Positions 10,598 to 64,000 of a stretch of 64,000 nt of DNA are shown piece by piece; positions within the stretch are counted from its first letter, which is position 1; each line of letters opens with the position of its first letter. The notes beneath the pieces were generated by a model. The model saw only the letters and a list, made by a program, of their open reading frames with translations. It searched no databases and was not told the origin of the DNA. A program made the position numbers and the translations under genes. Origin of the DNA: Selaginella tamariscina (Eukaryota; Streptophyta; Lycopodiopsida; Selaginellales; Selaginellaceae); NCBI GenBank assembly GCA_003024785.1, contig PUQB01000795.1, positions 32,908 through 96,907 on the forward strand, in the 5' to 3' direction.

Positions 10598-13101
10598 TTA
10601 ATACAGTTCAATTGGTAATCTTGGTGTAGCAAATGCCTTCAAAGGGAATTTCCTACTCAGGTGATTCCAGACACTTCTTCCATGCTAAGCATTTCCTCTT
10701 CCACCCTCCACTCAAATGCATGCACAAGATGGGCCAGCGTTATCTCAACCATCCTTAACCCAAGTGACAGACCAGGGCACATTCTCCGGCCCGACCCAAA
10801 TGGTATCAGCTCGTAATCTTTCCCCTAACATCAATGGGTTTCTCACAACCTATCGGGATTAAACACCCCGGTGACTCCCACGCACTTGCATAACAAACAC
10901 AAAGTTAGTCCGTGTGTGTGTTGGGAGAGAGAATGTATACTTTGGATCTCTTCGATTGCCCAAACGTTAATGAAGACGGTTGTTTTTTGGGTATCTTATA
11001 ACCATTGACCACACACTCTTGAGTTGATGCGTGAGGAAACCAACAGAGTCCAGGTGGATGTAAACGAAATGTCTCCTTAACAACAGCACGAAAATAGTCA
11101 AGTTTACTGAGATCTGCTTAGTTACCATCCGATCACAACCAACTAGACCGTCGATCTCCTGGCGACTTCTCCATATATTTAGGATTTTTTATGAGCTCAG
11201 AGATTGCCCATTCCGTTGTTATTGCGGATGTGTCCGACCCTGCTGAGAGAAATCCTGCATAGAATAAGGGGTAAGATTAAACCCTAAACTCATACCTTAA
11301 AACTTACCAGGATCAGAGCTTTGATGTCAGTGTCACTACCCCCTTGAGAGAGAGCACTCAACAACATCCTCTACATCAATTTTCTTGATATTTCTCGACA
11401 ACTTGTGTTCGTCCACAATTCTCTGCAATGTGACATCGAGTTTCTTATGTAAAAACTCCATTCTGCTAATAGGACCCTCTTAAATCCAGCCACCACAAGA
11501 AAGGAACATAGTCCCCTATGATAAATGCCCCCAGTAACTTCGAGATTTCATGCAAATACGCCAAGAAATCCCCCAAAGATGACTCACCAATTAACTTCTT
11601 ATGAAATGCCATCATGCTAATCACATTAGTTAAGCATTTGTAACCTGGTATGAATATCAACTCCATTTTGACCCTCTTTAACTATCGAGTAAGGAAGCTG
11701 GAATCTCCTCTAACCTTATGCTTTGTGATTCCTCTATCCTTCGTACTGTAAATAGCTCTACGACATATCTTCTTCATCATTCTCAGTGTTGTCCGTACTC
11801 CGAAAGTCCCACATCCTTGCGTTATAAACATGAGCCTCGAGCTGTTTCTCTGGCCTTGAAGGATATACATGATGTTATACAGTTGCTATTACATTAAATT
11901 ATTATATTTCTTCTACGAGTATAGGAAAGGACTCAAACAAATTATGCATGTTATAACTAAAATGGGCAGTCTATAGTTTTTTTTAATAATATTAATAATT
12001 TTAAATATTTAATTAACATTTTTAATATTAAGAAATATTCTTTAGAAATAATATATGTTTAAAAAAAGATTTAATTATATATTTATTAAATAATTAATTA
12101 AAAAAATTAAAACTTAAGCAATAATTAATATTATTTTTTATTTTCATTTTCCTATATCATGCCCATTTTAGTTACAACGTGCNTTACAACTTGCATCACT
12201 ATTTAAATTAGAAAATTTAATAATTACTTAAGATAATAAAATAAACTGAGACTTCTAATTTAAAATTATACAGAGAAGTTTCCTCCCTTAATTCTGGAAT
12301 AACAACGTAATCACTATATTTGTTTCTTATTTTGAAATATTAGATTGAATCCACGAATAATTAATAATACAATCCTTAATTGAGTATGAAGTATATCAAG
12401 GTAACACTTCATGGTTCAGACTTATAAATATAAATTTAAAATATATACATTACTGTATAAATTAGTCTCAAAATATTAAACTATTATTTATCAGAACTAA
12501 AATATATAAACAGATCTATTCATATATGATATGTATTTAAATTTATTTAACTTTATAGATGTATAAAAAACTTGTGAAGACATTATATTTACTTACAATT
12601 TACATATTGTAATAATAATATTTATATATTCCTTTTTTCACATTTGCATATATAGTTAATGCATTCATGGATTTATTAAATATTTTAACTTGTTAAAACA
12701 AATTTAGTACATTCTAACATATTTGAATAGTATATATCCAAACCATAATATTTACAATATTTTATACTGTCATTATGCTATTGTTATGTCATGAACTACT
12801 GTATAATATCTTATACAGTACCTGGATGCAAACACAAGATCGTGTGTGGAAAGGACCTCCCTCGCAACTTCAGCTGAAGAAACCACAATGGTCGGAACTA
12901 AACCGAGTTTAACCATCATAATTGGACCGTATTTCTTAGATAGATTGAAGAAGGTTTGATGAGGTAAAGCTCCTAACGTAAGCAAGTTTCCCATAATGGG
13001 AGGCCTGGCGGACCAGGTGGAAATCGACTGCCTTGTTTTCCTTTGAAAAACCATATTGCAAGCAAAGAAAGAATTGCTATTGCTATAACTATGGCTTCCA
13101 T
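10598..13101 (-). pseudogene. Cytochrome P450, A-type (CYP71 clan), near full length, frame-broken
   Basis: There are four exons. Exon 1 (13101 to about 12822) has a membrane anchor, a proline-rich hinge (PPGPPG), GNLLTLGALPHQ and FASR at the splice. Exon 2 is about 11870-11330, exon 3 about 11280-10950 and exon 4 about 10900-10598. The I-helix AGSDTS, K-helix ETFR and heme loop [10 protein letters not shown] are all present, and the protein ends LPIELY. Heme-thiolate monooxygenases of this clan sit on the ER and oxidise specialised metabolites; the substrate here is unknown. Three introns sit after FASR, before the I-helix and before the W-E-S-P-E segment. Frameshifts occur in exon 1 (one base lost before the GNLL motif), exon 2 (around 11690) and exons 3-4. 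Intron 1 carries a MITE. Confidence 0.7.
11946..12182. repeat. MITE in P450 intron 1
   Basis: A 237-bp AT-rich segment is bounded by inverted repeats: GCATGTTATAACTAAAATGG at the left and, on the opposite strand, GCACGTTGTAACTAAAATGG at the right. It has no coding capacity. One end of a second copy lies at 57784. An ambiguous base (n) follows at 12183. No target duplication could be defined. Confidence 0.65.
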
Positions 13102-13136
13102 CGATTATATACAGTATATAATCTGTCCGATGGATT

Positions 13137-13167
<31 letters not shown>

Positions 13168-13460
13168 TCAATTTGGGAAGAAGATAAACAGCAACCACAT
13201 GACACATGTGACACAAGCCGAGCAAGTGGTGATGGGATGGATCAACCACAAGGAGAGCACGTGGTGATGGGATGGATCAAACTATGGCGTCCATCGTTTA
13301 CATACAATACATAGATTATGTATACATATTGGAATAAATTGGGAAGGTGATTGTATTGTCTTTTTAGAAATGACGTGGCTTCATACATGTATGTACATGT
13401 GGCATCTCATCATGCAAGGATATCTTTATGTCGTTTTTTCAACACACAAAACACGCATTC
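13102..13460 (-). promoter_or_regulatory. Chimeric P450 upstream region with ACGT-core box
   Basis: The first ~160 bp upstream of the ATG at 13101 match the flank of the P450 fragment at 47.3 kb. From about 13280 the sequence restarts with a vestige of a second P450 start (a reverse-strand ATGGACGCCATAG). It then follows the flank of the 43.6 kb P450. The conserved box GCCACGTCAT (13370-13379) has the ACGT core of bZIP binding sites and recurs at 43696-43705. Confidence 0.4.
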
Positions 13461-14825: not shown

Positions 14826-14835
14826 CATAAAGACT
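14826..14835 (+). repeat. 10-bp target-site duplication, left
   Basis: CATAAAGACT here is repeated exactly at 22754-22763. The bases just outside differ (a versus t), so the duplication is 10 bp. Confidence 0.75.
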
Positions 14836-14997
14836 GGGGTCTCGGCGAAAAGGAGGCTCCGGCTCAGGAGGCTTCATATTATTCTAGTATATTCGCGGAT
14901 ATTCTGGTTTATTCTAGCAATATTCTCAAGAATATTCTAGAATATATAAGTTTTTTTAATATGCCGACTGGCTTAATAAAGCATTTTAATAAACCAT

Positions 14998-17900
14998 TTA
15001 TCCTTGTAGCACCGGTGGGTCATGAACTCTGCTGCAATTCACCAGCAAACGGTGGACCTCCATCTCACTGAGCGATCGCCTTTGTAGAAAATATGTGACG
15101 TCCGGGTTCAAGCCAAGCACACGGCTGTAGACGAAGTACATGTGTACACATGGGCTCCAACTTTTGCTCTTCTGAAAGTAGAACAACTGCATGTAGGATA
15201 AGTATTAATAGTCACCTTTGCAGAGTCATTTCCTGCCGACACAACGAAAGCCTCCTTCCGTCCTCTAGCTGTCACTTCAACATTTCTCACACGACCTAAA
15301 AACGTCTTGGCCTTGTGGAAATTCTTCTCTTGTTCCTTAGACATTTTTGTTGGAGTCCGGACCATACGTCCTTCGAAAGGTGGAATTGTTGTAGATCCAG
15401 CTCCACGTGGTGGCGATGGTGTTTTGTCCTTCTGACCCTCATCTACTCTTCCTGCCATCCCCTGTAAACCTTCCAGAACAAAGCCTGCATCCTGTAGTTC
15501 TCTGACCTCCTCACTTGTCAGCTTCGTTTCCTTGAGCACAGGCCAAACCGTTGGTGGTGTTGGAATTCGTGACTGAAGAATTTTGCCGTTTGGCCGCGTG
15601 AAACACCCTGAATCTTTTGGGCAGAACCACATCATCTGTTGTACATACTCCTCATTCCCCAAGGCATCAATGTACATTCGTTTTCCATAGAATCCTGGTG
15701 CTGGCACTCTGCTTGGATAACCGATTGGTTTTCCACACAGAGCAGTTCCTTCCTGATTCATCCCCAAACACTTAACCTTACTGATGCTCCGATTCGTCTG
15801 ATGGCCCACTCTGTTTGAGCAATCTCTCTCTCCAAAACCTCTTCGAACCTTAACCTCTTTCTCCTGTTGTTTTGGACCACCCGCTCTGTGTACTCTACAT
15901 CATGTCTGTGTGAACGTCGAGCATCAGACTGTTCTGTTCCTGTGACTGTTCTCCTAACAGTTTGCACTCGAACGTTAGTGGTACTCGTGAACTCCGGGCT
16001 GGTCAAGTGTTCCTCGCCTTCCACCAGATTGATAATTGTTGATGGAGATACACTTTTCCCCTCAGAGAGTTTGCGTTGCACTCGTTTCAACAGAGTTTCC
16101 TTCGAAGGCCCTGACCCTGTATACCTCCCTTCTATTGCCGCTTTCACCTTCGCACTCTGCATAACTGCATCGGTGAGGTCTAACATTGTCGCCTCCAGCA
16201 GTGGTACTCTTTTGGCCAATCTTGCTCTTCTTGCTCTCGTGAATCACTTCAGCATTGTTTGTAGTTGGAACGCTCGCGAGTCCTTCTTCTGTCATGTCTC
16301 CCAGTTCCGCCATGGAGATGTGGTCCTCATGCCATGTCTTCAAAGCTCGAATGTTTGACGCTCGTCCTTCCCAAAAAGACTCGAGAATTGCTAGTTGTTC
16401 TTTCTTAGATTGTTCATTCAGTGCTGCAGGCCAGGCACGAGCAAGCTTCATGTGTTCTTCGCGATGTTCTTCTGCGATCCATTTCTTTGTCACCTGACGC
16501 ACGGATTGCATAAAGTGAAACAGACAGCTTCTTTCCCTCCCTTTCATCTTTGCTCCGTTGTTGAATACTTGGCGCAAGGCTATCCATATCGCTCCAGCCT
16601 CATCCGACATGAAACCAGCAAAGTTGACATTCTCCAAACCCTGCTTCTTACAAACCTCTAGCATTGTGTTCAAGAACTTCAGCACTGCAACATTATCTTC
16701 GCGGCACAATATCTGCGTAAGCTATAGTCACCATGGATCTGACACTGTAAGAGAGCATTAGATAACAAAGATTAGAAAGTGTTATGAAGAGTTCTACAAC
16801 TTACAATGGGTCATAAAGGTGTATTCCAATTGTCGCCCAGTCTGGTATACGGTGCGTGTGGTCCAGAACAACCCATTGATCATGAAGGTCTCCTCCACTT
16901 TGACACCTTCTGATGTAGTCAACTCCTGAACCCGGTCCCTCAACTGTCATTTTGAAGATCAGAGGCTGCTCCTCAGCACCATGCAGTTCCATCCCTGGAA
17001 CATGTATGACGTGAATGAAAGGTATTGGCAACTTTGTCTTCAGCTCCAGAAGACCCTCGTAACCCTCTCTAAAGTGTGTCTCCTTCTGTCTTGATTGTGT
17101 AATCCAGTCCCGAGTCCTAAAGGAAAGGTCACGTCAGTGTGTAGAGATCTAAAGAAAAATACCTTCGATGGTTTGTTAGAGGTTCAAGTTTTGAGAGTAA
17201 ACCAGTGTACGAGACTTCTCCTTCTTCCTTGAAAAGTTCTTCAAAGATGAGCTCACGCCAGCTTGAAACTCAATCACTCGTTGATTGGTTCGCGGACTGC
17301 TCTTTACCACGTTGCTGACACTAGATCTGGCACGCTGAACGTTTGAAGCTGACACTGAGGGGCTGACTGGATGCTGATGAACACCTCTGTGAATGAACAA
17401 CCTTGTAAAAGAAATGTCGTCTGGCAGAATGTAGTACACATAAGCCGGACAAGTGTGCACTAGCAATGGCTCCTCTCCACAATGCTTACATTTCATGCCT
17501 ATTACTTTGCCTGTCTCAGTTGTCTTTGCCTTCTCCACAGCACCCTTGAAGTGACATTCATTTGCTTTCTTCTCAAAAGCCAAGTAGGGGCAGGTAGGAT
17601 TGATGCATTTGAGATGTCCGACACATGAACTTCGACTGACTCGCCGGAACATGCCAGTGTGTTGTGCTCGGGTGTGTCCAATGGTAGCAGCCATCCTTGC
17701 GATTCATCCCCAAGTACTTCTCTGTGCTTTCTTTCTTTGGAGGAAGTTCGTAAATGACATTTCCATTGTATATCTGCGGTAGTTCAGAGACTCGTTTAAC
17801 TTCAGACGAACCAATGAGATCCTTCCCTATCCTACATTTGTCTGCTCTTAGAAGACACACCAGCATGGATTCCTCACGCTCCTTGTCCGCAACCTGAACA

Positions 17901-18128
17901 ACGGGCCCTTTGCCGGGCACAATGTGTAAAAGACAAACTGGTTTGATGCATTGCCTTCTGGTAACAACTCCACATCTTCTCCAGAACTCGCAGAAACTGA
18001 CATCAATTGAACCACATGTATACTGAACCAACAAGGAATGTTGAAAGCAAGTGAAGATCATGTTCAAACACAAAAGCATTTCCATCTTCATCGACTGGGA
18101 AATCTTTGTCATAGGTAACTCTGGCCAT
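14998..18128 (-). CDS. Mutator-like (MULE) transposase with SWIM zinc finger, frame-broken
   Basis: The start at 18128 opens MARVTYDKDFPVDEDG. Exons run about 18128-17163, 17116-16805 and 16744-14998, with GT-AG introns. The order is an N-terminal Cys/His-rich zinc-binding region (KCINPTCPYLAF; MKCKHCGEEP; C-P-A-Y-V-Y-Y), a segment HDQWVVLDHTHR with a candidate first catalytic Asp, FAGFMSDEAGAIWIALRQVF with a second Asp, the C/H motif RSCLFHFMQSV, then a C-terminal SWIM finger (PTCSCSTF, then after a one-base slip SPCVHMYF: CxC...CxH). Frame slips near 16715, 16200, 15790 and 15190 interrupt it. Transposases of this type cut and paste their element in the nucleus. It diverges from the plus-strand gene across about 1.2 kb. 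I am confident of the superfamily but not of the exact catalytic triad. Confidence 0.72.
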
Positions 18129-18199
18129 GACAACGCAAGGAGAAAGCTCGGTGGTTTAGGAAAGCAAAGCAAAAGATTAAACACACTCTCGTTCGCCAA

Positions 18200-18600
18200 A
18201 AAAAATTATAATCGTTGATAATAAACGTGAATACACTTTTGTATATAATTAATTCTACCCAGCTCACAGTGTTCTTAATGCTGTCCTCTCTAGTATCACC
18301 GATTTAATTTAATTACTACCTTTTATGATTTGAAATATCTTCACCTTTACCAATTATTCACATATTTTAATATTAACCCTAAATATTAATGTCACATTTA
18401 TTCCGTAGGGTTCACTGTTTTCATTGCGGCTAGGGTTTTTTGGTAGATAGGGTTTACTGTTTCCACTGCGGCTAGGGTTTTTTCAATCTCAGATCTGAGT
18501 TCTGAAATCTCCTCCAAGGGGCTTGAGAGGAGCGGCGCCATCCATTTCGAGTCGATTCGTGCAGCGCCCAAGTAAATCAATCGAGATTTCTGTGCCGATT
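18200..18600. promoter_or_regulatory. Bidirectional spacer with telo-box-like repeats
   Basis: Between the divergent genes a near-duplicate of about 40 bp occurs twice (about 18408-18445 and 18446-18485). It contains GCGGCTAGGGTTTTTT and TAGGGTTTACTGTTT. The TAGGGTTT telo-box cores are common in plant promoters. The tract plausibly drives one or both element genes. Confidence 0.4.
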
Positions 18601-19383
18601 TAGATTGTCGGCACCATCCTGCTCAGTCGGCGGCCACAAGGTATGTGCAATTTCTTTATTTTATGATTTGCGGCTCAAATAATTTATTTTTCAGAGTAAA
18701 GGGTCTTCCCATTTGTGCCGACTGAGAGTGACGGCACCATCCTGGTTCAGTCGGCAGCCACAAGGTATTTTCAATTTGTTTATTTTTTGCTTTGCGGCTC
18801 AAGTATCGTATCACAATGTTTTTTTTTTCAGAGTTAATGGGTCTTCCATTTGTGCCGACTGAGAGTGACGGCACCATCCTGGTTCAGTCGGCACACAAGG
18901 TATTTTCAATTTGTTTATTTTTTGCTTTGCTCAAGTATTCGTATCACAATGTTTTTTTTTTCAGAGTTAATGGGTCTTCCCATTTGTGTCGGAATCCCAG
19001 AGATAAAGGGTCTTCCCATTTGTGCCGACTGAGAGTGACGGCACCATCCTGGTTCAGTCGGCAGCCACAAGGTATTTTCAATTTGTTTATTTTTTGCTTT
19101 GCGGCTCAAGTATTTTTTTTTTTCAGAGTTAATGGGTCTTCCCATTTGTGCCGTCTGAGAGGGACGGCACCATCCTAGCTCAGTCGGCACCATTATCTCT
19201 TCAGTGCCGTCTGAGAGGGTGGCACCAACTGTCTCAGTCGGCAGGATATGTTCTTCTACTTCTCTGTGCCGACTGAGAGGGTCGGCACCATCTAGCTTGA
19301 GTCGGCAGCCACAAGGTTAGTCATCTTTGATTTTTATTTTTATTTTGTCTCCTAATCAATTGACTTGTGTGTTTGCTTTCCAG
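18600..19383 (+). repeat. Tandem hairpin array built as exon plus mini-intron units (5' leader of the ParB-methyltransferase-like gene)
   Basis: Repeat units of about 120-150 bp each hold an inverted-repeat block followed by an intron-like block. The first can pair two ways: GTGCCG with CGGCAC, or TGCCGACTGA with TCAGTCGGCA. Copies begin near 18715, 18852, 19022, 19148, 19204 and 19266, and a partial one near 18608. The second starts CACAAG/GTATTTTCAATTTG and ends TTTTTTTCAG/AGTTAATGG. Five such introns can be drawn (about 18641-18694, 18765-18831, 18900-18964, 19072-19126 and 19316-19383, 54-68 nt each). The last acceptor sits 10 nt before the ATG at 19394. Confidence 0.7.
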
Positions 19384-19393
19384 AGTTTACAAA

Positions 19394-22300
19394 ATGGTGA
19401 GAGCTTCAAAACGTCTTACTAGAGACTGCGCCTGATGAAGAGCCAGGGAAGAGAAGAGGATATCGAAGCACAAGCGAGGCAAGAGAGGAGAACCATCTAA
19501 TGTAGCAAAGGAGGATCCTCCAGTGACTCAGTCTGAAGTAGTACCAGTTGAGCAGGAGCAGCCTCCATCAACCATCACAGATTTCCCGGAGAGCTCGTCG
19601 CAGTTGCCTCCTTCATCCGCTGAGGTTACAGTCCTGAACGAGCAAGTGCAGATGACAGAGGCAGTTGAAGCTAGCGAGGACGACTTGGAGGAGGCAGTCA
19701 GCAAAAAGAGAGGCCGCGGGAAAGCTGATCCAAAAGGCAAGAAGGCGAAGAGCGATAAGGAGCCGAAGGAGTTATACAGCATACCGGCTAGCCTGCATTT
19801 GGAGAGCTCAGCGAACCTGCTCGACAAAATTACTATCAAGGGACTTGGTGATCCTCCTGATGTGCCCATCTGTAGAATGCATTCGAACGAGGTGGTTCGA
19901 CGAGTGAACCCAGGGGACTTGGACATGCTGGTGTCATCGTTGAAGAAGGCTGGTTATCTACGCAACACGGCCTTGTTCATTCTGTCCATCGGAGATCCAC
20001 TCACTACTGAGGAGCTATCGGAGCTGTCGAAGGACACGGTTCAGTACGAGCAGCACCGGTCTTTCGAGCAAGCTCTTACTCAGCCGGAGTACAAACAGTG
20101 GGCTTCGAGGCTCTCAAACCGGAAGTTCAGCTGCTGGAGGAACCATAGGCTACAGGCTTTGCAGAAGCTCTACCGGGAGGATGCAGAGGACAACCAGCGA
20201 TGGGCTATTCGCGTTCGATCGAGTTTCATCTCCACGGAGAACCTCGACAATCTTCAACTGGTTTCGATGTTCCAATCGATAAACATGTGAGTATTTTCTT
20301 TTCTTTTCGTTAAGGGTCTAGACTTACAGTTTCATTGAACAGATCTTCAGCAACATCTGTGGAAACAACGCTACCACATATTCTCCTCGCTATAAAGGCG
20401 GTCTGCACTAGTACCGAAGGAACTCAAAAATCCTCGAGTCACTCACGGAGGTTGATCGTCTTGAGGTGCGGAAGTGGAAGGAGAGTTCAACAGGAAAGAC
20501 GGCTTGGCATCCTCTTCCAAACCTGATCTGCGCAAAGATCCTTTTCAAGGTAACCTCAATTTGATTGATAGGAAAGAAGTTTTTAACTTATTTATGTGCA
20601 GAACGAGATCGACGATGATCTCGAAAGCAGTCACTAGTGCTAAAGGCAATCCACAACTTGAGCTTGAACCTGAAGCAGCTAGTGTACAAGAAGCATGACA
20701 AGCGTATGCACAAGTTCCTCTCTATCATAGACCCAGAGTTGGGGGAGGAGTGGTTCCAGAAGGTGACGAACATCTCTCATAAGCAGTGTCACTGGATGGG
20801 CATTGAGAAGCTGTACGCGATGTCAAAGGCGAAGATTTCCAAACATGCTGCAACTCCGATACTTGAACAAGCTCACTCGTCTCGAATCCAAGGCAGAACA
20901 ACAGACACTTGGGCTACCAGGCATGCAGGACAAAGAGTGGATCAAGTGGTTCACCTTGGACTTATATTGGAAGTGTGTGAGGAAAGCCATTCAGATCCTT
21001 AAGGTTGCGAGAGGATGGTGAAGAAGTTGGAACGGATGTCGACTTCATGAGCTGGTTTGACGAGATGCAAACTCGAAGCAAGTGCCTGGTCTTTCAGCCC
21101 TTCCATGACTGCATACGGTTCACTTTTGATGGAGCCGAATGAGTTTCTGGAGTGAGGATCTGCACGGATGATATGGAGGTAAGCTTTCATTCCAGCATTG
21201 CTACTGACTAACTTTGTGTTACAGGTTCATACTGGCGAAGAAAATGGCACCGTCTCAACGATGAAGCTGTGGATAGATCATACAAGTGAGCCTCACATGT
21301 GGTCGAAGAGCAGAGGAGCTCTAACACCGTTCGAACAGGAGCATGTTCCATTCTGGCTCGACTGTCCGTCGCAACAGCCACCAGCTTGGGAGAGCTCACT
21401 GTTCGACGTGCATGGCAATGATCTACCAGCGATTGTTTGGGAGCCAAAGTAGAGGCTATCAAGAAGAGCAAGATGAAGAAGACGGTGCGGAAGACATCTA
21501 CACCTGCAAAGGGATCGGGAGCGGGACCAAGCTCTTCTACAGCACCTCCGCCGGCAATCGACTTTACAATCAATGAGGTGCAGCCACTTGTAGCTGGTTT
21601 GGACATCAAGGACGACCTGATGACCTTCATCCCGACACTGGCTGCATCCCGTGGATCCTACGACCTGGTTGTGTGATATGGAGGAGATGAGCAGGTCTTT
21701 CTTCGAGCCGGGTGCTTCTTAGACAGAGGTGTACACCAAGCTCCGACAACAGGTTGACAGACAACATACGGCTGAGTCACAAACGGTGTTCCAGGAAGTG
21801 GTAGGTGAATACGGCTTCAACCTCATCATCCTCGACTTGCCCAATGAGCTTGTATATGGAGGTGCTAGCATCAACAAGGACATTGTGCAGCTAGATCCGG
21901 TGAAGTTTGAGGAGGCCTTGCAGTTCAGTGGAATGCACTTGGCAGCGATGGTTTCATGGTCGTCTTCGCGAGTTCTCCTTCTGTTTCGGTGTGATTCAGG
22001 CGGTTGCGTAATCAACTTGGAGGTTGCAGGACTTACAGCGTCTACCGTGCACGAGGCTGGGGATACCGTGACAAAATTAAGGTAAGCTAACTATTCAAGT
22101 TCAAGTTAACTTGTCTATGTGGCAGGATAACTTGTTGGTTCTCTTGGTGCTGCAAAGCTCTGAGAAGAAGTCGAAGAGGCCAAACCCTTTGGCATTGACG
22201 AACATGATCCTCGTCGATACCGCCGACCATTTTCAGGAGCTTGGTAAGGAAGTACTTTACTTTGTTATTCCTAATGGAAGTTTGTGTAGGATGATGATTC

Positions 22301-22572
22301 AACCGAAGAGTGTTCAACTCATGCAACTTTTGATGAGCGTCTCAGTAGACCTGGCGACCTAGTCTGGGATATTGGTTCCAGAACCGAATCATCGTTGTTA
22401 TTGCCATCGAGCTCGGAAGAAATATTATAGGAACCGAGAAAGAGTTTCGAACTCTCTAGGTTGGCAACAAAACAAGCTCGCAAAGGAAATACCTGCTCAG
22501 ACACCTCCACGTCCAAGCCTAAATGGTGGTTCGAGAACTGCAGCTTTACTTAAGATGAAGAAGAAACTTTAG
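19394..22572 (+). CDS. ParB-like domain fused to a beta-class amino-methyltransferase-like domain (locus 1)
   Basis: Exons run about 19384-20285, 20343-20549, 20602-21178, 21225-22081, 22126-22243 and 22290-22572. The N-terminus is acidic, with a basic nuclear-signal-like run (KKRGRGKADPKGKKAK). A ParB-N-like segment follows: PICRMHSNEVVRRVNPGDLD, then KKAGYLRNTALFIL, then KFSCWRNHRLQALQKL, the last resembling the DGxHR-type motif of ParB/Srx folds. The middle is helical and charged. The C-terminal part reads FNLIILDLPNELVYGG (position of motif IV, D/N-P-P-Y), GFMVVFASSPSV, a later segment DNLLVLLVLQSSE, then GDLVWDIGSRTES and IELGRNIIGTEKEF (motif I region). The IV-before-I order is that of beta-class N4/N6 methyltransferases, but both motifs are altered. 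One-base slips occur near 20640, 21440, 21940, 22390 and elsewhere. Homology is by eye only. Confidence 0.6.
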
Positions 22573-22753
22573 CTAATGTGTATTAAGTAATAAATTAAGC
22601 TAATATAAAAAGAATAAGGTAAAATACAACAGTTTTACTAGAAATGTTTTTTTCCGACTGAGGCTAGACCAGAAAGAATATTCTAAAATATTCTAGAATT
22701 TCTAAAATATTCGAGCCCATGCTCCTGGCCCCAAGCCTCCAAAATGCGACACT

Positions 22754-22763
22754 CATAAAGACT
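22754..22763 (+). repeat. 10-bp target-site duplication, right
   Basis: CATAAAGACT repeats 14826-14835 exactly. From here the P450-flank sequence resumes (ATGCAATGTCCGATAGCACTT), as in the uninterrupted copies at 33.0 and 47.8 kb. Confidence 0.75.
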
Positions 22764-41166: not shown

Positions 41167-43609
41167 TTAGGAATACAGTTCAATTGGTAATCTTGGTGTA
41201 GCAAATGCCTTGAAAGGGAATTTCCTACGCGAGTGATTCCAGACACTTCTTCCATGCTAAGCATTTCCTCTTCTACCCTCCAATCAATGCATGCACAAGA
41301 TGGGCCAGCGTTATCTCAACCATTCTCAACCCAAGAGACATAGCAGGGCATATTCTCCGACCCGAGCCAAATGGTATGAGCTCGTAATCTTTCCCCTTAA
41401 CATCAATGGGTTTCTCACAAAACCTATCGGGATTAAACACCTCCGGTGACTCCCACGTACTTGCATAACAAACACAAAGTTAGTCCGTGTGTGTGTGTGG
41501 GAGAGAGATGTATACTTTGGATCTCTTCCGATTGCCCAAACGTTAATGAAGATGGTTGCATCTTTGGGTATCTATAACCCTTGACCACACACTCTTGAGT
41601 TGATGCGTGGGGAAGCAACAGAGGTCAGGTGGATGTAAACGAAATGTCTCCTTAACAACAGCATGAAGGTAGTCAAGTTTACTGAGATCTGCTTCAGTTA
41701 CCATCCGATCACAACCGACTAGACTGTCGATCTCCTCGGACTTTCTCCATATATTTAGGATTTTTTATGAGTTCAGAGATTGCCCATTCCGTTGTTATTG
41801 AGGATGTGTCCGACCCTCCTAAGAATAAATCCTGCAGCAAATGGGGTGAGATATAAACCACAACACAAATGGTACCTTACCAGGATCATAGCTTTGGTAT
41901 CACTGTCCTCTACCCCTTGAGAGAGGAGCACATCGACGACATCTTTTGCATCAATTTTCTTGGTATTTAGCGACACCTTGTGTTCTTCCACAATCCTCTG
42001 CAATGTGTCATCAAGTTTCTTATGTAAAATCTTCATCCTGCTAATTATAGGACCTCTTAAATCCAGCCACCACAAGAAAGGAACGTAGTCCCCTATAATA
42101 AATGCCCCCATTAAGTCGAGGGTTTCATGCAAATACGCCAAGAAATCCCCAAAAGATGACCCACCGATTAACTTCTTATGAAATGCCATCATGCCAATCA
42201 CATTAGTGTTCAGCATTTTAACCTGGTATGAATATCAACTCCATTTTGACCCTCTTTAACTATCGAGTTAAGGAAGCTGGATATCTCCTCTAACCTTATG
42301 CTTTGTGATTCCTCTATTCTTCGTACTGTAAATAACTACCGTACATATCTTCTTCATCGTCCTCCAGTGTTGTCCGTACTCCGACCATCCCATATCCCTT
42401 GCGTTATAAAACATGAGCCTCGAGCCTGTTGCTTTGGCCTAGAAGAATATAAATGATGTTTATACAGTTGCTATTACATTAAAACTATTACAATTAACAT
42501 AAAATCTTCTACCAGTATACAAAGACTCTGACACATTATTTAAATTAGAATATTTAAAATTACTTAAGTAATAAAATAAGTAGACTTTTAATTTAAAATT
42601 ATACAGAGAAGTTTCTTCCTTAATTCTGGAATAACAACGTAAATCTTACCTTCACTATATTTGTTTCTTATTTTGAAATATTAGATTGAATCCACGAATA
42701 ATTAATAATACATTCCTTAGTCGAGTAAGTAATGCTAGTTTAATATACTAGTAGATTAAATGCACTTGTGGTTCAGACTTAACATAAATTTAAAATACAG
42801 TATTGTATAAATTAGTCATTATATATTAAAATATTAAACTATTATTTATGAGAACTAAAATATATAAACAAATCTATTCATATATGATACATATTTAATA
42901 TATTTAAAATTTATATTGCTTTATAGATGTATAATAAACTTATGAAGAATATATATTTTTTTATTTTTAATATTTATTTTTTTACATGCTTAATATTTAT
43001 AATTAACACATTATATTTAGTTACAATTTATATACCGTAAACATAAATATTTATATATTCCCCTTTTCACATTTGCATATATGTTTTTGACAGAGCCTAT
43101 TTTCGGTGCAAAATCTGTATTTTAAATGCATAATTTGATGTAAAAACCCTAAAAATTATGCATTTAAAATGCAAGGCACTAGTTAATACATGCGTTATTT
43201 ATTCAAATATCATGGATTTATTAATATTTTAACTTTTAAAACAAATTTAGTACATTCTAACATATTTGAGTAGTATATATTCAAACCATAATATATACAA
43301 TATTATATACTGTCGTTGCTATTGTTATGTCATGAACTAGTGTACCTGGATGCAAACACAAGATCGTGTGTGAAAGGACCTCCCTCGCAACTTCAGCGGA
43401 AAACCACAATGGTAGGAACTAAACCGAGTTTAACCATCATAATTGGACCAGAGAGAGAAGAAGGTTGATGAGGTAAAGCTCCTAACGTAAGCAAGTTTCC
43501 CATGATTGGGAGGCCTGGCGGACCAGGTGGAGATCGACTTCCTTGTTTTCCTTTGAGAAACCATTGCAATAAAAGAAAGAATTGCTATTGCTATAACTAT
43601 CGCATCCAT
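41167..43609 (-). pseudogene. Cytochrome P450, A-type (CYP71 clan), near full length, frame-broken
   Basis: Exon 1 runs 43609 to about 43345 (MDAIVIAIAILSF anchor, PPGPPGLP hinge). Exon 2, about 42440-41885, is the longest intact stretch in the family (MLNTNVIGMMAFHKK... to LLSQGVEDSDTKAMIL). Exon 3 is about 41840-41530 with an intact I-helix GGSDTS and ETFRLHP. Exon 4 is about 41465-41167, with heme loop FGSGRRICPA whose last Gly is Ala. The end reads LPIELYS then TAA. Defects are a two-base loss in the anchor (ATTGCAATGG), a larger deletion in exon 1 replacing the KKYG region, and one-base losses in exon 4. Its 5' flank contains the ACGT-core box. Confidence 0.72.
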
Positions 43610-49240: not shown

Positions 49241-49920
49241 CACCACTGCTTAAGAACTCCATAAGAAGAGGGTGACGATAATGTTCTCACTTTTGCTGTT
49301 TGCATGTTAGTTCTTCCCATGTTTAGCCATTGTTTGAGCATATCTTAGTTTCATTAGCTTCAAGTAATCCTTGGTTACTTGTACATTTAACTTAATGTCT
49401 ATCCAAGTTTATGACAATATATTTCTAATCACTCTTTGAAGTGCCTAATCAACTTTTGGTTCATTACCTTGGTAGGGAAAGAAGGCATGATTGTGCTTAA
49501 GTTAATTTGTAGCTCACGATTGAACACCAATTTTACTAGCACTCATAATTAATTCCATCTCTTATAGAATTACAGATGTCGACTTTTCTTAGGTGGGTAG
49601 GAGTTAGACATCTTTCTTAACAATGACATCCTTTTTGAGAATGAGGTGTTTAATAAGTGGGTGAACATCATCAAGGAGATGAAGAAGAAGCTAACACCTA
49701 TGGAGAAGCCATCCACCTTGAAAAAATCAAGTAAATTAGTGAAGCATAAGGTTGTCTCACCTTTGAAAGAAATTCACACCAACTTAAAGCTCACGTGGTT
49801 GAAGCCCCTTGAAGATAAAATAGTAGGCAGGATAAATCCCACCGAAGAACTTTTTTACCATGTATGATGTGATTTAATGACCACATGTTGTTGTGGCTCT
49901 GAATGGACAAAGGTTTTCCA
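49241..49920 (+). other. Repeat-derived sequence with a short lysine-rich reading frame
   Basis: A 73-codon frame at 49646-49867 encodes a K-rich segment (EMKKKLTPMEKPSTLKKS). It has no recognised domain and is probably an eroded retroelement fragment. No function is assigned. Confidence 0.3.
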
Positions 49921-57783: not shown

Positions 57784-57932
57784 TAATGCACGTTGTAACT
57801 AAAGTGGGCATGATACGTGAAAATGGGAATATAAAATAAATTACTAATTAATACTTAAGTTTTAATTATTAATTAATCATTTAATTAATATGTAATTAAG
57901 CCTTAAATATTAATTAATTAATTAATTAATCC
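57784..57932. repeat. One end of a second MITE copy
   Basis: GCACGTTGTAACTAAAGTGG and the following ~140 bp match the right half of the MITE at 11946-12182 in reverse. The match stops within a (TTAA)n run where CCTTCAATAACC begins. The other inverted repeat is not in this window. Confidence 0.6.
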
Positions 57933-58057: not shown

Positions 58058-59330
58058 TCAACATGTTAATTTTTTATAAATACTTTCTTCTATCATACAA
58101 AGAAATCTTTTCATTTTGTCTAAATCATCACTCTCCGGATTAATCAAATCATTTTGGTCAATATCTTGATGTTGTTGCCACCACTTAACACTCTCACGAA
58201 TGCAATTGGGAGTTGCCATCCTTGTTAATACATAAGATGTGATAAGAGAAGGTCTGCATAAAGGCTCATCTAAAAACTGACGTTCCTTAAGAATAATATT
58301 ATAAAGCGCCCGGTTGCTATCCTTCATTTTATAAAATTCAATATCACGAGAAAGAAAAGCTTCAGGAAATGTATGATACGGTGGATACTGCTCACAAAAA
58401 TTTTCGAGATTCTTCTTTCTGAGGCACGTATCCAAGTAGTTCACTAGCTCATCCATGATATCGGTATCAGAATATGGATCGAAAGTGATTGGATGAATAC
58501 AAGCAATGTTTTGGTTGAGCATAGCCTTCTGAGGAGAGTCGTCTACTACTAACATCTGTGCGTTCTTCATTATCCTTAAGCGACTGATCTCCCCATGAGT
58601 CCCAATTATTCTTTCATTCTTGAAGAAGTATGGCTTGCTTTCCTTTCTTATATTGTGAAATTCGAGAGGTTTATACACATTCGCTGGTCAAAAATCCAAT
58701 CTTTACGAATCACCTCTTCTGCAACACTACAATGTTTCTTAAGTAAATTCAACAGCGGTGTTAAGTTATGAATCTGCATGCATGACCAAATCCCCACAAG
58801 CGCACCCATCTCCTTAAGCTTTTGAAAGAGACGATCCAACCCTGGACGAAAAATAATATCATATCGAAATTTACCATGACAAGGAATGAAATCTCCTTGT
58901 TTGATTTCTTTTTTCTATCCTCGGGCCTTTGTCGATGAAGCAGAACACCATTGACATCCAACAACACAATATGGCCATGAGTAACATGAGATAGCGTTGC
59001 CTCTTGAATACTTTGCAAATCACTTGTTTGCTCCCTTTCACATTTATCCGTTGCCACTATCTCGTTGCCTATCCCTTCATCATTTAATTGTACATCATCC
59101 TTACAAGATTCAGATATTGCATGCGCTGAAGAAATTGATTTCGGAATTGAAGCCAATAAAAATGATGATGAAGTGGCCCCCATGGTAACGATGTTTTGAG
59201 CTGCATTATTATCCATTTCCTGCATGAACTCTGTCATTCTGACATGTGGCACAAGAAATTGTCGCCAAACCCCTCTCTTACCTCATGGCAATGCTGAAAA
59301 TCCATGTTCTCAATTATTTCATTACATCTG
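58058..59330 (-). CDS. FCP1/NIF-type HAD phosphatase-like protein
   Basis: On the minus strand an acidic N-terminal region (with possible earlier exon at about 59330-59285) leads to HIVLLDVNGVLLHR. This is HAD motif I, in which the usual D-x-D-x-T is D-x-N-G-V. A frame slip near 58900 is followed by FRPGLDRLFQKLKEMGALVG and IWSCMQIHNL (motif II region). A second slip near 58680 is followed by MLVVDDSPQKAM (motif III, acidic pair kept) and a C-terminal helical domain ending KKLTC. Family members with DxDxT dephosphorylate proteins such as the RNA polymerase II CTD. Loss of the second Asp suggests weak or no phosphatase activity, though D-x-N-G variants are known in plants. It follows the ParB-methyltransferase-like gene on the same strand by about 200 bp and may be part of the same mobile unit. 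Confidence 0.62.
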
Positions 59331-59509: not shown

Positions 59510-62500
59510 TCAATTCATTATCAATTCTTCTTCGCTATTACCTTCTGAGTGAGGCGAAGAAGGTCTAAGCCGCTTGTGAGATGGTTCAAGATCTTCTGCA
59601 TCTTCTATTGATGTTTCCATGGGTCCTGGAGTGTGCGAATGTTCTGTACTCCTCGAGATAACTTCCGGTCTAATATCTGATTGAAGTTCGTTCTCAGACT
59701 CCGAGATTGAACCAGATTCACCTTCAGAGCTATCGCACTTATCTGGAGGGAACTTTCTCAAATACGCCTTTATGGATTCGTTGGGGTACTCAGTTGAGAC
59801 CCAATCTATCCACTTGTTCAGGTCCTCAACCATGGTCTTATCCTTTTCAACGGCAAACACACATGTATGCCGAAGGTAACACTCCTTCAAGACGGACCCC
59901 CTAGTGCAGTAGTCAAAAACCCACGCATCACTGTGAGGACCCCTGATCAAGTTGACGATGCTCCGTGCCGCTTGACTTGTAATGTTTGGATAACGTACAT
60001 TGCCGAATACGTCACTCATACCTATCGGTGTATCGGATGGAGGTTCAGGGCCGTTGGAGTGCAAACAGATGCCTGGCCAGTCATTTGGAAGCTTGAAATT
60101 GTTTGGCGCATTCCTAACAACCAAGTGAACAACGGTATCAATGCACTTGGGATTAGCATCGTTCATATAAAATCCTGTCCAACGATGTCTATTCTTCTTG
60201 GCGAAGGCGAAGGCAAAAGTATCGGTGACATGAGCAAGAATCAAGAAATAAATACCTGAAAAAGTAGGTATCAGTGAAGAGCGCAAGCATGAATTCAATA
60301 ATAAATACCTTCTATGTATATGCTTGCACGGCTAAGTTTCTCCACCAGATCCTCTAGTGCCCTATCTGTCGAAAGATTTTTTGACACCCGCCGATCCATC
60401 ACGAACAATTGAAACGGTTTCCTACAAGCAGTGATGTTACCCCATAAAGTCTCCGAATCTAACAACAAACATCTGTAGGGCTTGTCGTGATTCGTAGCAT
60501 CCTCCTTTATAAGGTTCAATTCGGTTCTCCGCTGCTGAAGGACTGCCATAAGAGAAGGCGTCATCCCAATGTTCTCCTTTTTGGCGTTGGCGTGCAATAG
60601 ATTCTTGCCAGATCTTCCGATTGGTTCACCCATTCGACAAGCATATCATCGTTCGTCACATGCAAATATTTGCTGACCTCTTCATATGTTGAAGTCGAGG
60701 TCCAACCCAGTTTGTGGCAGTGTATTCCCAACCACTCCTTGAAATGCCTGACCGTCTTCAACTCCATTGCCTTGAGATGAAAAGGAGAGGTTGGGCTGCT
60801 GTTATTAATTTAGTTTGCCATCGATCACCAAATCAGCCAAGACTTCCATCTCCTCCATCGTTGTTCCATTTAAAGGCTTCAACCATGTGAGCTTGAAATC
60901 GTTGTCTACATCCTTTGTAGATTGAACAGACTTAGCCTTTCGGCGTCTTACTGGGTTTTCTTGGCAGACTTTTTTGAGGGCTCCCCTTCACTTGTCTGCT
61001 TCTTCTTCAGTGTTCCTTTTGAAAAGGATTCCATAATCCCCAACCATTTGGCAAAGATCCTATCTTCGGGGCAAGAAATCAACATCATCAGAAATGATGT
61101 TTCCTTCCCGCCCACCTGGGCAAAATCAACTGCTGCAATTTCTTCAACTCTCTGAGGAAAAAGACAGATTAATATACCGGCGAGATAAATCCCGCCAAAC
61201 AATTTGCTTACCCGGTATTTCCGCAGATTGTGTATTCCCTGCGGTAGCTCTTTGTGGTCGCTGAAGAGATTCCCACACGGCTCGCGTGTGTTTAAACTTC
61301 TCCCTTTTGCTGTTGTAGTGGTTGGTGTCGGCAGCGTCCCATTCCGCCGATAACTTATGGTACTGCTCGATTGTGAGATTCGGCTTAGCTAAACGCCGAT
61401 CTTTTTGTCAGCTTCTCACGGGTATGCTCGGAAAGTTTGTTGCCATCGTTCCTTTGTTGTGTTCATCGAGAAGTCGTTGGGCTGCCGTTATTGTGTGCTG
61501 GCCACTAATGATGTAGTACTTGATAGATTTTTATTCTCCGTCTGAATCTTCATGAGTTGTTCTGGTGTTGTGATCCAGACTTTGTCAGCGCCCTTCCTTC
61601 TTTCATAGTATGGACACAAAACAGCATTATGTGGAACGGTATAAGAATTGTCGTCCTTCATCTTCTCCATGAGCTCAGCTACACGTTCCTGGTTGAGTGG
61701 CCTGTAATTGAAGTTTGGGTTGACGCTGCAATATTTAACCCTACAAGGATAAATCTTATCATCCAACATCATTTCCTTGTGACTTATTGCAGCATGAGAT
61801 GCCACAGGTGCAGCTGACAAAACGATTGATGATTTTCTTTTGCGATCCGAATCAACATGTGTGATCCCCGACTGCAGCTGTTCTAGTGTTCTCGGTACAC
61901 TCTTCCAGCTCCCAAATCCTAAGCAAATTGAACGTGATCTGTAGAGAACCTGAGACCGAGCCACCCTCTCAATCTCCATTATGATGTCGCTGTGTTCTTC
62001 TTCAATGTGAAGAGGGAAGATTGCTCACTTGCTGATTTTCTGTATTGTGAAGCAATATCTCCTGACAATACACCTACTCGATGAGTCTGAAGATTTCGAA
62101 GTAGACATCCAGATGGATCCCCTCCATAGATGGGCTTTCGTTGAGTTGAAGAAGAACTCCAAGGTCAACATCATTAGTGAACACGTGAACGTCATTATCC
62201 ACAAGTCGACAAAACCACCCGAAATTAATGTTGTAACTGACGACCTCTGGATCCGAGAACGTGACATTGGATGGAACAAGGCATAGTGTCGAGAATCGTC
62301 CAATCTGGGTTCGCAGCCTGCTTTCGGGTGCTTGACTAGCGAATCTACTTTCCATTGTTTTGCTTGTCCATGAGATGTGACAGAGGTTAATTTGACAGCA
62401 GCCATGGTTGCTCCAATGCGCTTCCCATTTATCTTAAAATATGGCCAAGTTGATTCCAGAATCCCCCTGCCCATCTCTTCTCCTGCTCTTGTCTTTAATG

Positions 62501-62602
62501 TCACCTCAATTCCACATCTGAATACAAAAATGATTAGTTCAAGTATCCGAGTATAACAGATTTTTATTTTAATTCTTACCCAGAATTTGACGACGACTCC
62601 AT
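59510..62602 (-). CDS. ParB-like domain fused to a beta-class amino-methyltransferase-like domain (locus 2)
   Basis: The ATG at 62602 opens MESSSNSG; an intron (62579-62518) joins it to CGIEVTLKTRAGEEM. Later exons cover about 62517-62030, 61979-61213, 61154-60309 (probably interrupted) and 60255-59510. The ParB-N-like part has YPCRVKYCSVNPNFNYRPLN, VAELMEKMKDD and then YYIISGQHTITAAQRLL (about 61530-61480), resembling the DGQHR motif. A basic segment KKKQTSEGEPSKKSAKKTQ follows. The methyltransferase-like part has YRCLLLDSETLWGN (motif IV position), a hydrophobic strand IYFLILAHVTDTFAFAF, then DAWVFDYCTRGSVLKE and CVFAVEKDK (motif I region), and an acidic C-terminal tail. Domain order and several positions parallel locus 1. 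Frame slips occur near 62350, 61530, 61400 and 60610. The assignment is by eye. Confidence 0.58.
61179..61196. repeat. Single array-type palindrome inside an intron
   Basis: GGCGAGATAAATCCCGCC sits in the intron at about 61212-61155. It differs at two positions from the array unit GGCGGGATTAATCCCGCC found 1.8 kb upstream. Confidence 0.6.
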
Positions 62603-62831: not shown

Positions 62832-62939
62832 TTACATAGATTCCTAGCTTTTACTCGAAATATTATGATAAGATGATAAAAGTAAATAAAATGAGATATG
62901 CAACTTATATATACTAATACACATATATATTCACATGGA

Positions 62940-64000
62940 AGGTGCGGCGGGATTAATCTCGCCACCCCTTCAATGCCTCCTGAAAGAGTGGGCGGGATTA
63001 ATCTCGCCACCTTTCTGGAGGCCTTGAACGGGAGTGCGGAATTAATCTTGCCACCCTTCTCGGTCTCAGAGAGAACTGGGCAGGATTTATTTCTCACACC
63101 CCTTCAGTGACTCCAGAAAGGAGGCGGGATTAATCTCGCCCACCATGTAAGGATGGTTAAATGAATTTCCCACCCTTCCCATTCTCTCCATTGGTATGTT
63201 GAAACCTTCTACGTCTCAGACAGAAACGTTTGGGATTGGTCCGACTCACCAATGGAGAAAAAAGGAAGGGTGGCGGGATTCATTCCTCCAACAGGCATTG
63301 AAGACTCGGCGGGATTAATCCCGCCGCCCAGGGCCTTCACTCGGTCCCTATGCGGCGGGATTAATCCCGCCGGACGCCAATTCCCTGCGCGGAATCGGGC
63401 GGGATTAATCCCGCCGCCTAGGCACTTCAGGCAGGCCAATGGCGGCGGGATAATCCCGCCCGATTCCGCGCAGGGCATGCGTACGCGATTAATCCCGCCT
63501 CCCAGGCCCTTCACTCGGGCCTTAGTCGGCGGGATTAATCCCGCCGAACGCCAATGCCCTGTGCGAAATCTTGCGGGATTAATCCCGCCGCCTAGGCCCT
63601 TCAGGCAGGCCAATGGCGGCGGGATAAATCCCGCCCGATTCCGCGCAGGGCATGCGTACGCGGCGGGATTAATCCCGCCCACCATGTAAGGGATGGTGAA
63701 ATTAATCCCACCACCCTTCTCAGTTCCCTCCATTGGTATTTTGTAAACCTTCTCCGTCTCAGACAGAGTTAGTCGGGATTGATTCAACATACCAATGGAG
63801 GAAAAAAGAAGGTGGCGGGATTAATCCCGCCACCGGGTAATGAAGGTTCGGAGAGACTAATCCCGCCGCCCTCTCGTAAATCATGCGCTCACACATATAT
63901 ATTGGCTGCGGCATTTTGAACAGGGATGGGTGGGGGCGGGATTAATCCCGCCGCTTATATCCTGCGGAAGTGCCTGAGCGGCGGGATTAATCCCGCCGCC
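62940..64000. repeat. Palindrome array, unit GGCGGGATTAATCCCGCC
   Basis: Perfect 18-bp palindromes start at 63308, 63354, 63398, 63528, 63662, 63814, 63935 and 63980. One-change versions lie at 63444, 63572 and 63618. Versions with CTCGCC for CCCGCC lie near 62946, 62992 and 63123, and half units at about 63485 and 63857. The units sit in larger inverted structures: CCCTGCGCGGAATCGGGCGG pairs with its complement downstream. A direct repeat of about 540 bp relates 63150-63280 to 63685-63820. The array is sharply GC-rich in an AT-rich region, begins about 340 bp upstream of the locus 2 start, and runs off the window end. Confidence 0.85.

What the first reader, a model, noticed from the sequence alone, without database searches (positions are those of the whole stretch)
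18600..22572. Possible ParB plus cognate-palindrome module in plant mobile DNA, seen twice
Two genes in this window (19394-22572 and 59510-62602) share an N-terminal ParB-like region and a C-terminal beta-class methyltransferase-like region. Each is preceded within about 80-340 bp by an array of inverted-repeat DNA whose sequence is specific to that copy. Bacterial ParB proteins recognise short palindromes (parS), and ParB-methyltransferase fusions are known in bacterial and phage mobile DNA. I infer that each protein might bind its own upstream palindromes, for autoregulation, for marking the element, or for copy segregation. I know of no described plant system of this kind.
Basis: partly seen in the sequence, partly recalled or inferred. 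Interest (0 to 1): 0.92.

Follow-up and report, generated by a model that had tools for sequence, protein, structure and literature searches.

The report
Transposon proteins with matching DNA arrays
Jumping-gene families in this genome each carry, next to their transposase gene, a gene for a large protein (methyltransferase-like in two of the three families seen) and, just in front of it, an array of short inverted DNA sites particular to that family, which suggests that each family has its own protein-and-tag system for controlling or unsilencing itself.

Summary
The arrays and both genes are real. The window holds two DNA transposons. Element A (14836-22754) has a 9-bp target-site duplication. 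Element B's right end is at 57786; it runs past the window end. Both have one layout: transposase gene, central array of inverted sites, then the ParB/methyltransferase-like gene, divergent from the transposase.

The methyltransferase part is confirmed for A in an intact copy (Pfam N6_N4_Mtase 1.1e-8; SAM motif kept, DLPN where DPPY is expected). It is not detectable for B. The ParB assignment rests on motifs only; every profile test failed.

I found a third family, X (ParB-like region 61% identical to A), with the same layout and its own perfect 22-bp palindrome. Main sites differ by family: A GCCGACTGA, X GCCGACTGG, B GGCGGGATTAATCCCGCC. The X palindrome occurs 1,092 times and the B palindrome 27,128 times in 300.7 Mb; reversed-pattern controls gave 0.

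Best reading: a transposon-encoded DNA-binding protein with cognate arrays, working like VANDAL/VANC anti-silencing but with an unrelated protein and inverted sites. Binding, and any effect on silencing, are inferred. Partition is unlikely. A transposition role for the sites (A also has half-sites near its ends) is the main rival.

The parts
14836..22754 (.). Transposon A (7,919 bp), Mutator-like by its 9-bp target-site duplication
   Evidence: TSD ATAAAGACT at 14827-14835 and 22755-22763, the only two occurrences on the + strand of the window; ends located by comparison with copies C837, L033, L034
15108..18205 (-). Gene A2, transposase-like, divergent from gene A (broken in this copy)
   Evidence: Pieces; second copy in C837, main pieces 71-96% identical; X2 homologue divergent from X; DDE/SWIM-like by eye only, no Pfam hit
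18589..19310 (.). Array A: inverted half-sites of GTGCCGACTGAG / CTCAGTCGGCA, unit spacing 118-170 bp
   Evidence: 10 half-sites against 0.01 in shuffles
19394..22572 (+). Gene A, ParB-like / methyltransferase gene (broken in this copy; a 992-aa intact copy is spliced from L033)
19775..20287 (+). ParB-like region of gene A (motif level only; start approximate)
   Evidence: motif WDGNHRL in the intact copy L033; no profile support
21650..22456 (+). N6/N4 methyltransferase-like region of gene A (limits approximate)
   Evidence: intact copy: PF01555 E 1.1e-8, PHROG 67 E 1.3e-10, MboIIA 4.5e-4
62936..64000 (.). Array B: GGCGGGATTAATCCCGCC units; continues past the window end
   Evidence: 15 units; 9 perfect palindromes against 0.055 shuffled; palindrome columns outside the 8-bp anchor 77-100% conserved over 13 units, spacer columns 31-69%
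59510..62602 (-). Gene B, ParB-like / methyltransferase-like gene
   Evidence: 141 scored near-identical copies of its 273-aa last reading frame, all without stops, of 5,856 candidates
61411..61770 (-). ParB-like region of gene B (motif SGQHT; frame broken here, in frame in copy L021)
   Evidence: no profile support
59513..60645 (-). Methyltransferase-like region of gene B (resemblance by eye only)
   Evidence: not above shuffles in hhalign
61180..61200 (-). Single B-type site (GGCGGGATTTATCTCGCC) in an apparent intron of gene B
   Evidence: GGCGGGAT at 61189
58058..59282 (-). Gene B2, NIF/FCP1-like phosphatase carried downstream of gene B
   Evidence: PF03031 E 9.9e-12 on joined pieces
57786..57812 (-). 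Right terminal inverted repeat of transposon B
   Evidence: shared right boundary in 10 of 10 copies; TIR 23 of 27 in copy C335, element 14,669 bp

Best explanation
Each element is a DNA transposon with two divergent transcription units. One is its transposase. The other is a large ParB-like/methyltransferase-like protein, and an array of family-specific inverted half-sites fills the space between them. The second protein most likely binds, as a dimer or oligomer, the half-sites of its own family and coats the shared promoter. The result would be sequence-specific anti-silencing plus autoregulation: it keeps the element's promoters open against host silencing without touching the rest of the genome, as VANC proteins do for Arabidopsis VANDAL elements. 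The methyltransferase-type domain in A and X keeps the SAM-binding motif but has DLPN in place of the catalytic DPPY (motif recalled). It may be a regulatory pseudo-enzyme or a changed enzyme. Shown: layout, family-specific sites in the copies sampled, genome-wide site numbers, the methyltransferase fold in A/X by profile. Inferred: that this protein is the binder, that it dimerises, and that the outcome is anti-silencing.
For: Same layout in three families: A, X, B. For B, 9 divergent DUF7869 / gene-B pairs lie 10.2-11.5 kb apart on the contigs shared by the two printed lists (19 of 141 listed gene-B sites and 38 of 150 listed DUF7869 sites), with 0.1 expected by chance; one further pair lies at 17.9 kb and one in the same orientation at 4.0 kb. 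The main site type follows the protein family. A and X, whose ParB-like regions are 61% identical, share the core TGCCGACTG and differ in the next base and in arrangement; the distant B has an unrelated site. Of 9 clusters of the X palindrome in the listed part (50 of 1,092 sites), 6 lie 3,151-3,164 bp upstream of a listed X methyltransferase exon. In B the palindrome is conserved while spacers are not. Methyltransferase domain in A. The precedent, a transposon protein binding arrayed motifs in its own non-coding DNA with loss of methylation, is shown for VANC21 (PMC5735166, abstract and sections 8 and 9 read).
Against: No binding, expression or methylation data. Covariation rests on three families, two of them related, and X arrays also hold 1-2 A-type half-sites each. 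Arrays without the gene were not surveyed. The array also lies in front of the transposase, so the transposase could be the binder. In A, half-sites also occur close to the ends. On contig C1 the B-type arrays sit 2.1-2.4 kb from 6 of 6 listed DUF7869 genes (compared by hand), and whether gene B is beside them is unknown. In A the sites are only slightly better conserved than the spacer between them. The ParB fold is not shown by any profile, nor is gene B's methyltransferase.
Confidence: 0.5

Rival explanations
1. The half-sites are transposition sites, bound by the transposase or by the ParB-like protein acting like TnpA of En/Spm in end synapsis (TnpA recalled, not looked up). Regulation is secondary.
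For: Arrays lie in front of the transposase gene too. In A, 1 half-site (window) or 3 (C837) lie near the left end, and 1-2 GCCGAC sites near the right end in 4 of 4 other copies viewed (L033, L034, L069, L070); the window's own right end has none intact. B arrays accompany 6 of 6 listed DUF7869 genes on contig C1 (compared by hand).
Against: In the window copy of A the bulk of sites lies more than 3 kb from either end, between the genes. The two ends of B copy C335 hold no GGCGGG or CCCGCC in 444 and 433 bp.
Confidence: 0.22
2. The protein is an active N6-adenine or N4-cytosine methyltransferase that marks its own sites as self.
For: PF01555 above its cut-off and an intact SAM motif in A and X.
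Against: Motif IV reads DLPN in A and X, and DRRV in the place of B that I take for it, not DPPY (motif recalled); B's domain is not detectable.
Confidence: 0.13
3. The arrays act as RNA: hairpins in the transcribed 5' leader. In A each unit carries splice-like GT...CAG signals, so units could be small leader exons.
For: Splice-like signals bracket A units (read by eye); inverted repeats can pair.
Against: A and X keep the half-site but change its arrangement (abutting in X, spaced in A), as expected for DNA half-sites. Three of 15 B units have a one-sided change in the arm (GATTAATCTCGCC). No folding test was run.
Confidence: 0.06
4. Tandem-repeat by-product without function, carried along by amplification.
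For: Arrays vary in unit number between copies.
Against: Site kept while spacers diverge in B; same core in A and X at about 60% protein identity; same position in all three families.
Confidence: 0.06
5. ParB-parS style segregation of element copies.
For: ParB-like motifs and palindromes of about the size of parS (recalled).
Against: Elements are integrated; no ParA-like family in the Pfam scans of element genes (no dedicated search); no profile support for a ParB fold.
Confidence: 0.03

Closest known systems
VANDAL elements with VANC anti-silencing proteins (Arabidopsis, Mutator-like); PMC5735166 abstract and sections 8-9 read, PMC10398659 abstract read
   Same: An extra gene beside the transposase; short motifs in dense arrays in non-coding parts of the element, different between related families and variable in number; 9-bp TSD in A fits Mutator-like elements (recalled)
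   Different: VANC has DUF1985/DUF287 and its motifs run in one orientation (PMC5735166); here the protein has a methyltransferase domain (A, X) and ParB-like motifs, the sites are inverted, and the same layout occurs with an unrelated transposase (DUF7869, element B)
DNA transposons that carry TET/JBP dioxygenases in fungi (PMC12730594, abstract read)
   Same: Several unrelated transposon lineages carry a DNA-modification protein thought to help escape silencing
   Different: No cognate site arrays are mentioned in the abstract; the enzyme class differs
Bacterial and phage N6/N4 methyltransferases (Pfam PF01555; MboIIA, DpnA, CcrM in PDB)
   Same: SAM-binding motif and the segment before it
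   Different: Motif DLPN instead of DPPY; long N-terminal ParB-like part; in an intron-bearing transposon gene
ParB/Srx domain proteins and parS sites
   Same: Motif GNHRL/GQHT placed after a VPxxRI...N..R..L..L-like stretch (comparison recalled); inverted sites
   Different: No significant profile match; no ParA seen; no plasmid
TnpA of En/Spm (recalled)
   Same: Second element protein with many short sites
   Different: Sites here are mainly central, not subterminal

Membership tests
PF01555 N6_N4 DNA methyltransferase (gene A, intact copy L033) | Profile score above the curated cut-off | tested here: met
   35.8 bits, cut-off 26.7; matched part is profile positions 164-219 of 221 only
PF01555 N6_N4 DNA methyltransferase (gene A) | Catalytic motif (D/N/S)PP(Y/F/W) (motif recalled) | tested here: not met
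   DLPN in A and X
PF01555 N6_N4 DNA methyltransferase (gene B) | Profile or profile-profile match | tested here: not met
ParB_N (PF02195) / ParB | Profile match | tested here: not met
   No hit; 0 candidates in the whole genome while 11 of 14 control genomes ring; hhalign to RepB and SopB not significant
ParB | ParB/Srx fold | not testable with these tools
   Structure prediction switched off
ParB | Binds its palindromes; CTPase; ParA partner | not tested
   Needs bench work; no dedicated ParA search was made
Mutator-like (MULE) element, element A | Target-site duplication of about 9 bp (recalled) | tested here: met
   ATAAAGACT on both sides
Mutator-like (MULE) element, element A | Transposase profile | tested here: not met
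   No Pfam hit for A2 or X2 pieces
DUF7869 transposon (element B) | DUF7869 domain | tested here: met
   E 4.4e-22 for a half-element in C660 with the same arrays and a similar end; a DUF7869 hit lies inside B copy C335 and in 9 divergent pairs
VANC anti-silencing protein | DUF1985/DUF287 domains | tested here: not met
   Not among Pfam hits of the intact A protein at E up to 10
VANC-like function | Sequence-specific binding and loss of methylation of own copies | not tested
   Needs EMSA/ChIP and methylomes

The most novel reading that the evidence does not exclude
A general transposon-borne tagging system: unrelated DNA transposon families in one eukaryotic genome have each taken up a ParB-like/methyltransferase-like protein that recognises its own inverted half-sites. 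A and X differ mainly in the base that follows GCCGACTG and in the arrangement of the half-sites. Tens of thousands of sites would form a private, element-specific chromatin state, a eukaryotic analogue of ParB-parS coating used against silencing.
Probability: 0.35. Interest if true: 0.93.

Novelty: new variant of a known kind. Interest (0 to 1): 0.8.

Why it matters
If the protein binds its array, these would be natural pairs of DNA-binding protein and site whose specificity changes between relatives (A and X) by about one base. That would make the question of how transposons escape silencing without harming the host testable outside Arabidopsis, with a different protein class, and would supply element-specific epigenome-targeting proteins.

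Tried and rejected
Rejected: partition (integrated copies, no ParA-like family seen in the Pfam scans); A as a perfect-palindrome array (0 perfect palindromes of 12 bp or more); gene B as a proven methyltransferase (hhalign score 15.5 against phage enzymes, highest of 40 shuffles 21.4). PDB profile hits to alphaRep proteins are judged repeat artefacts. The relatives near B copies in C538a and C660, and A relatives in C335 and C538b, are decayed and were not used for the site test. A phage search with the gene-B ParB-like part and a viral-contig search with the gene-A part found nothing. SopB, RepB and RedRock records were fetched as ParB yardsticks; RedRock ParB was too short and unused, SopB and RepB gave no significant match. 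The strongest PF01555 hit (C1293) proved to be family A. Literature searches (listings only) showed no paper that I recognised as describing a ParB-like/methyltransferase gene in eukaryotic transposons; the library is open-access only, so this does not prove absence.
Full report
What is in the window. Array A lies at 18589-19310 and gene A starts about 84 bp on, at 19394. Array B lies at 62936-64000 (window end) and gene B runs from 62602 down to 59510 on the minus strand. Both arrays exceed 200 shuffles by far: 9 perfect palindromes of 16 bp or more in B against a mean of 0.055, and 10 GCCGACTGA half-sites in A against 0.01. Array A contains no perfect palindrome of 12 bp or more; its units are inverted half-sites with spacers.

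Element A is a transposon of 7,919 bp (14836-22754). It is bounded by ATAAAGACT at 14827-14835 and 22755-22763, the only two occurrences on the + strand of the window. The ends were found by comparing copies. It carries a divergent gene A2 on the minus strand (15108-18205). Its transposase nature is by eye (DDE-like and SWIM-like motifs, recalled); Pfam gave no hit for A2 or its homologue X2. The 9-bp duplication fits Mutator-like elements (recalled).

Element B is larger. Ten of 10 fetched copies share the right end, at window 57786. Beyond gene B it carries a NIF/FCP1-like phosphatase gene (E 9.9e-12 on joined pieces). Upstream of the array, in the opposite direction, lies a transposase gene of the DUF7869 kind: seen divergent in C960, C335 and C837, with a DUF7869 hit at C335:416864-417211 inside the element. 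The domain was first read in a half-element in C660 that has the same palindromes and a similar end (E 4.4e-22). In copy C335 the element is 14,669 bp with terminal inverted repeats matching at 23 of 27 positions; a 4-bp duplication ACAT is possible but was read by eye in one copy only. On the contigs shared by the two printed hit lists, 9 gene-B copies have a DUF7869 gene divergent at 10.2-11.5 kb, where 0.1 is expected (the lists hold 141 of 5,856 and 150 of 4,250 candidates, and 19 and 38 of those listed lie on shared contigs). One more pair is divergent at 17.9 kb and one is in the same orientation at 4.0 kb.

Domains. Pieces of the broken window copy of gene A gave no Pfam hit. An intact copy, L033, splices to 992 aa in six coding exons. 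It hits N6_N4_Mtase at 1.1e-8, above the curated cut-off, PHROG 67 DNA methyltransferase at 1.3e-10 and MboIIA at 4.5e-4. The hit covers the SAM-binding segment (WDIGSGTGSSLLAAVELGRNIIGTEK); hhalign of A+X against seven phage enzymes gives 97.8% probability over 63 columns. The catalytic motif reads DLPN in A and X instead of DPPY (motif recalled). For gene B no method found a methyltransferase; the best alignment puts the right motif opposite, but its score (15.5) is below the highest of 40 shuffles (21.4).

The ParB-like part is a motif-level resemblance. A and X have VPICRI..N..VRRVNP..L..L..S..K...GY and later CWDGNHRL. B has YPCRVKYCSVNPNFNYRPLN and later YYIISGQHTITAAQRL. hhalign puts these opposite each other (A+X against B) but at probability 0.5%. 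Pfam, PHROGs, NCBIfam and PDB searches were negative, and PF02195 gave no candidate in the whole genome although it rings in 11 of 14 control genomes. I therefore say 'ParB-like', not ParB.

A third family. Searching the genome with PF01555 gave 150 scored matches of 739 candidates. The commonest open frame in that list is 106 aa. Two loci fetched whole, L064 (106 aa) and L068 (113 aa), and the upstream regions L071-L074 of four more 106-aa hits, all belong to a new family, X. Its gene is related to A (61% identity over 241 aligned residues of the ParB-like region and the stretch after it). It has a divergent gene X2 related by eye to A2 and an array just before its ATG of perfect palindromes CCCAGTCGGCATGCCGACTGGG.

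Sites follow the protein family. GCCGACTGA: 4-13 in each of 10 A upstream regions, 1-2 in each of 6 X regions, 0 in 10 B regions. GCCGACTGG: 0 in 10 A, 4-24 in 6 X, 0 in 10 B. Perfect X 20-mer: 2-11 in 6 X regions (2 in the rearranged copy C531), 0 elsewhere. GCGGGATTAATCCCGC: 2-11 in 10 B, 0 elsewhere. Of 14 A loci held, L033, L034 and L076 had no upstream DNA and L066 is rearranged, without the array next to gene A; two decayed A relatives were not counted. B copy C837 was left out for a run of N. The four X loci L071-L074 were fetched where the array was expected, and all four had it. For some A copies whose start was not found a fixed 1,000-bp stretch was taken. The 52.7-kb window background held one GCCGACTGG, which lies inside element A's left end (14963), and one GCCGACTGA (27529). 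Arrays without a neighbouring gene were not surveyed.

Genome-wide, the perfect X palindrome occurs 1,092 times and the reversed control 0. The listed part (50 sites) holds 9 clusters: 6 lie 3,151-3,164 bp upstream of a listed X methyltransferase exon, 2 are on contigs with no listed X exon, and 1 (C132) is 28 kb from the listed one. The B palindrome occurs 27,128 times, reversed control 0. By a uniform-base estimate of my own, 0.004 would be expected. On contig C1, 6 of 6 listed DUF7869 genes have B-type sites 2.1-2.4 kb upstream (compared by hand). This shows that the array belongs to the transposase side as well and is not proof that gene B is the binder.

In array B the palindrome columns outside the 8-bp anchor are 77-100% conserved over 13 units, while spacer columns are 31-69%. 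In array A the contrast is weak: over 29 units from 4 copies the second and third half-sites average about 92% and 80% against 73% for the spacer between them (my arithmetic; the first half-site is biased because it was the anchor, and indels blur the rest). Units of A are bracketed by splice-like signals (by eye), so the array may be a leader made of small exons; this is inference.

Mechanism. The anatomy resembles VANDAL elements: an extra protein beside the transposase, with motifs arrayed in non-coding DNA of its own family that change quickly. For VANC21, binding to YAGTATTAY was shown by ChIP-seq and EMSA, and multiple motifs in one orientation at high density mark its targets (PMC5735166, section 8); related VANC proteins affect different elements (abstract). 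A survey of Mutator elements describes VANC as an anti-silencing protein of these non-TIR elements (PMC6446971, passages). Fungal transposons of several superfamilies carry TET/JBP enzymes, likely against silencing (PMC12730594, abstract). I therefore judge anti-silencing plus autoregulation most likely (0.5). The main rival is a role in transposition, because A has half-sites near its ends: 1 (window) or 3 (C837) at the left, 1-2 at the right in 4 other copies, none intact at the window's right end. B copy C335 has none in 444 and 433 bp at its ends.

Novelty. The function type would be known (sequence-specific transposon anti-silencing); the protein class, the inverted sites and the recurrence with two different transposases would be new. 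In six literature searches (listings) I saw no report of such a gene in eukaryotic transposons.

Noticed in passing
58058-59282 (-): Element B carries a NIF/FCP1-like phosphatase gene; its first motif reads LLDVNGVLL, with N where the second Asp of DxD is usual (motif recalled), so its activity is doubtful.
   Followed up: partly
49378-49810: Decayed stretch similar to the middle part of gene B (49% identity over 55 aa and 42% over 65 aa), an old relative.
   Followed up: no
61520-61540 and copies among L001-L027: 15 of 16 rows printed (window and fetched copies of gene B, some loci overlapping) share AATAAAAATCT, which breaks the frame inside the ParB-like motif; L021 differs there and is in frame. 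Assembly error, real mutation or recoding not settled.
   Followed up: partly
18589-19310 and L029-L032: Array-A units carry GTATTTT...TTTTTTTTTCAG signals, as if the array were a run of small 5' leader exons and introns.
   Followed up: no
L009/L010 (C660): Nested insertions, read by eye: a B copy sits in a decayed phosphatase gene and a DUF7869 half-element in a decayed gene-B relative.
   Followed up: partly
12773-13249, 41773-42216, 52874-53260: Cytochrome P450 gene fragments (Pfam E 9.3e-10, 7.3e-7, 2.9e-5).
   Followed up: no
L066: Rearranged A copy in which the transposase-like gene is fused to the middle of gene A and the array next to gene A is lost.
   Followed up: partly
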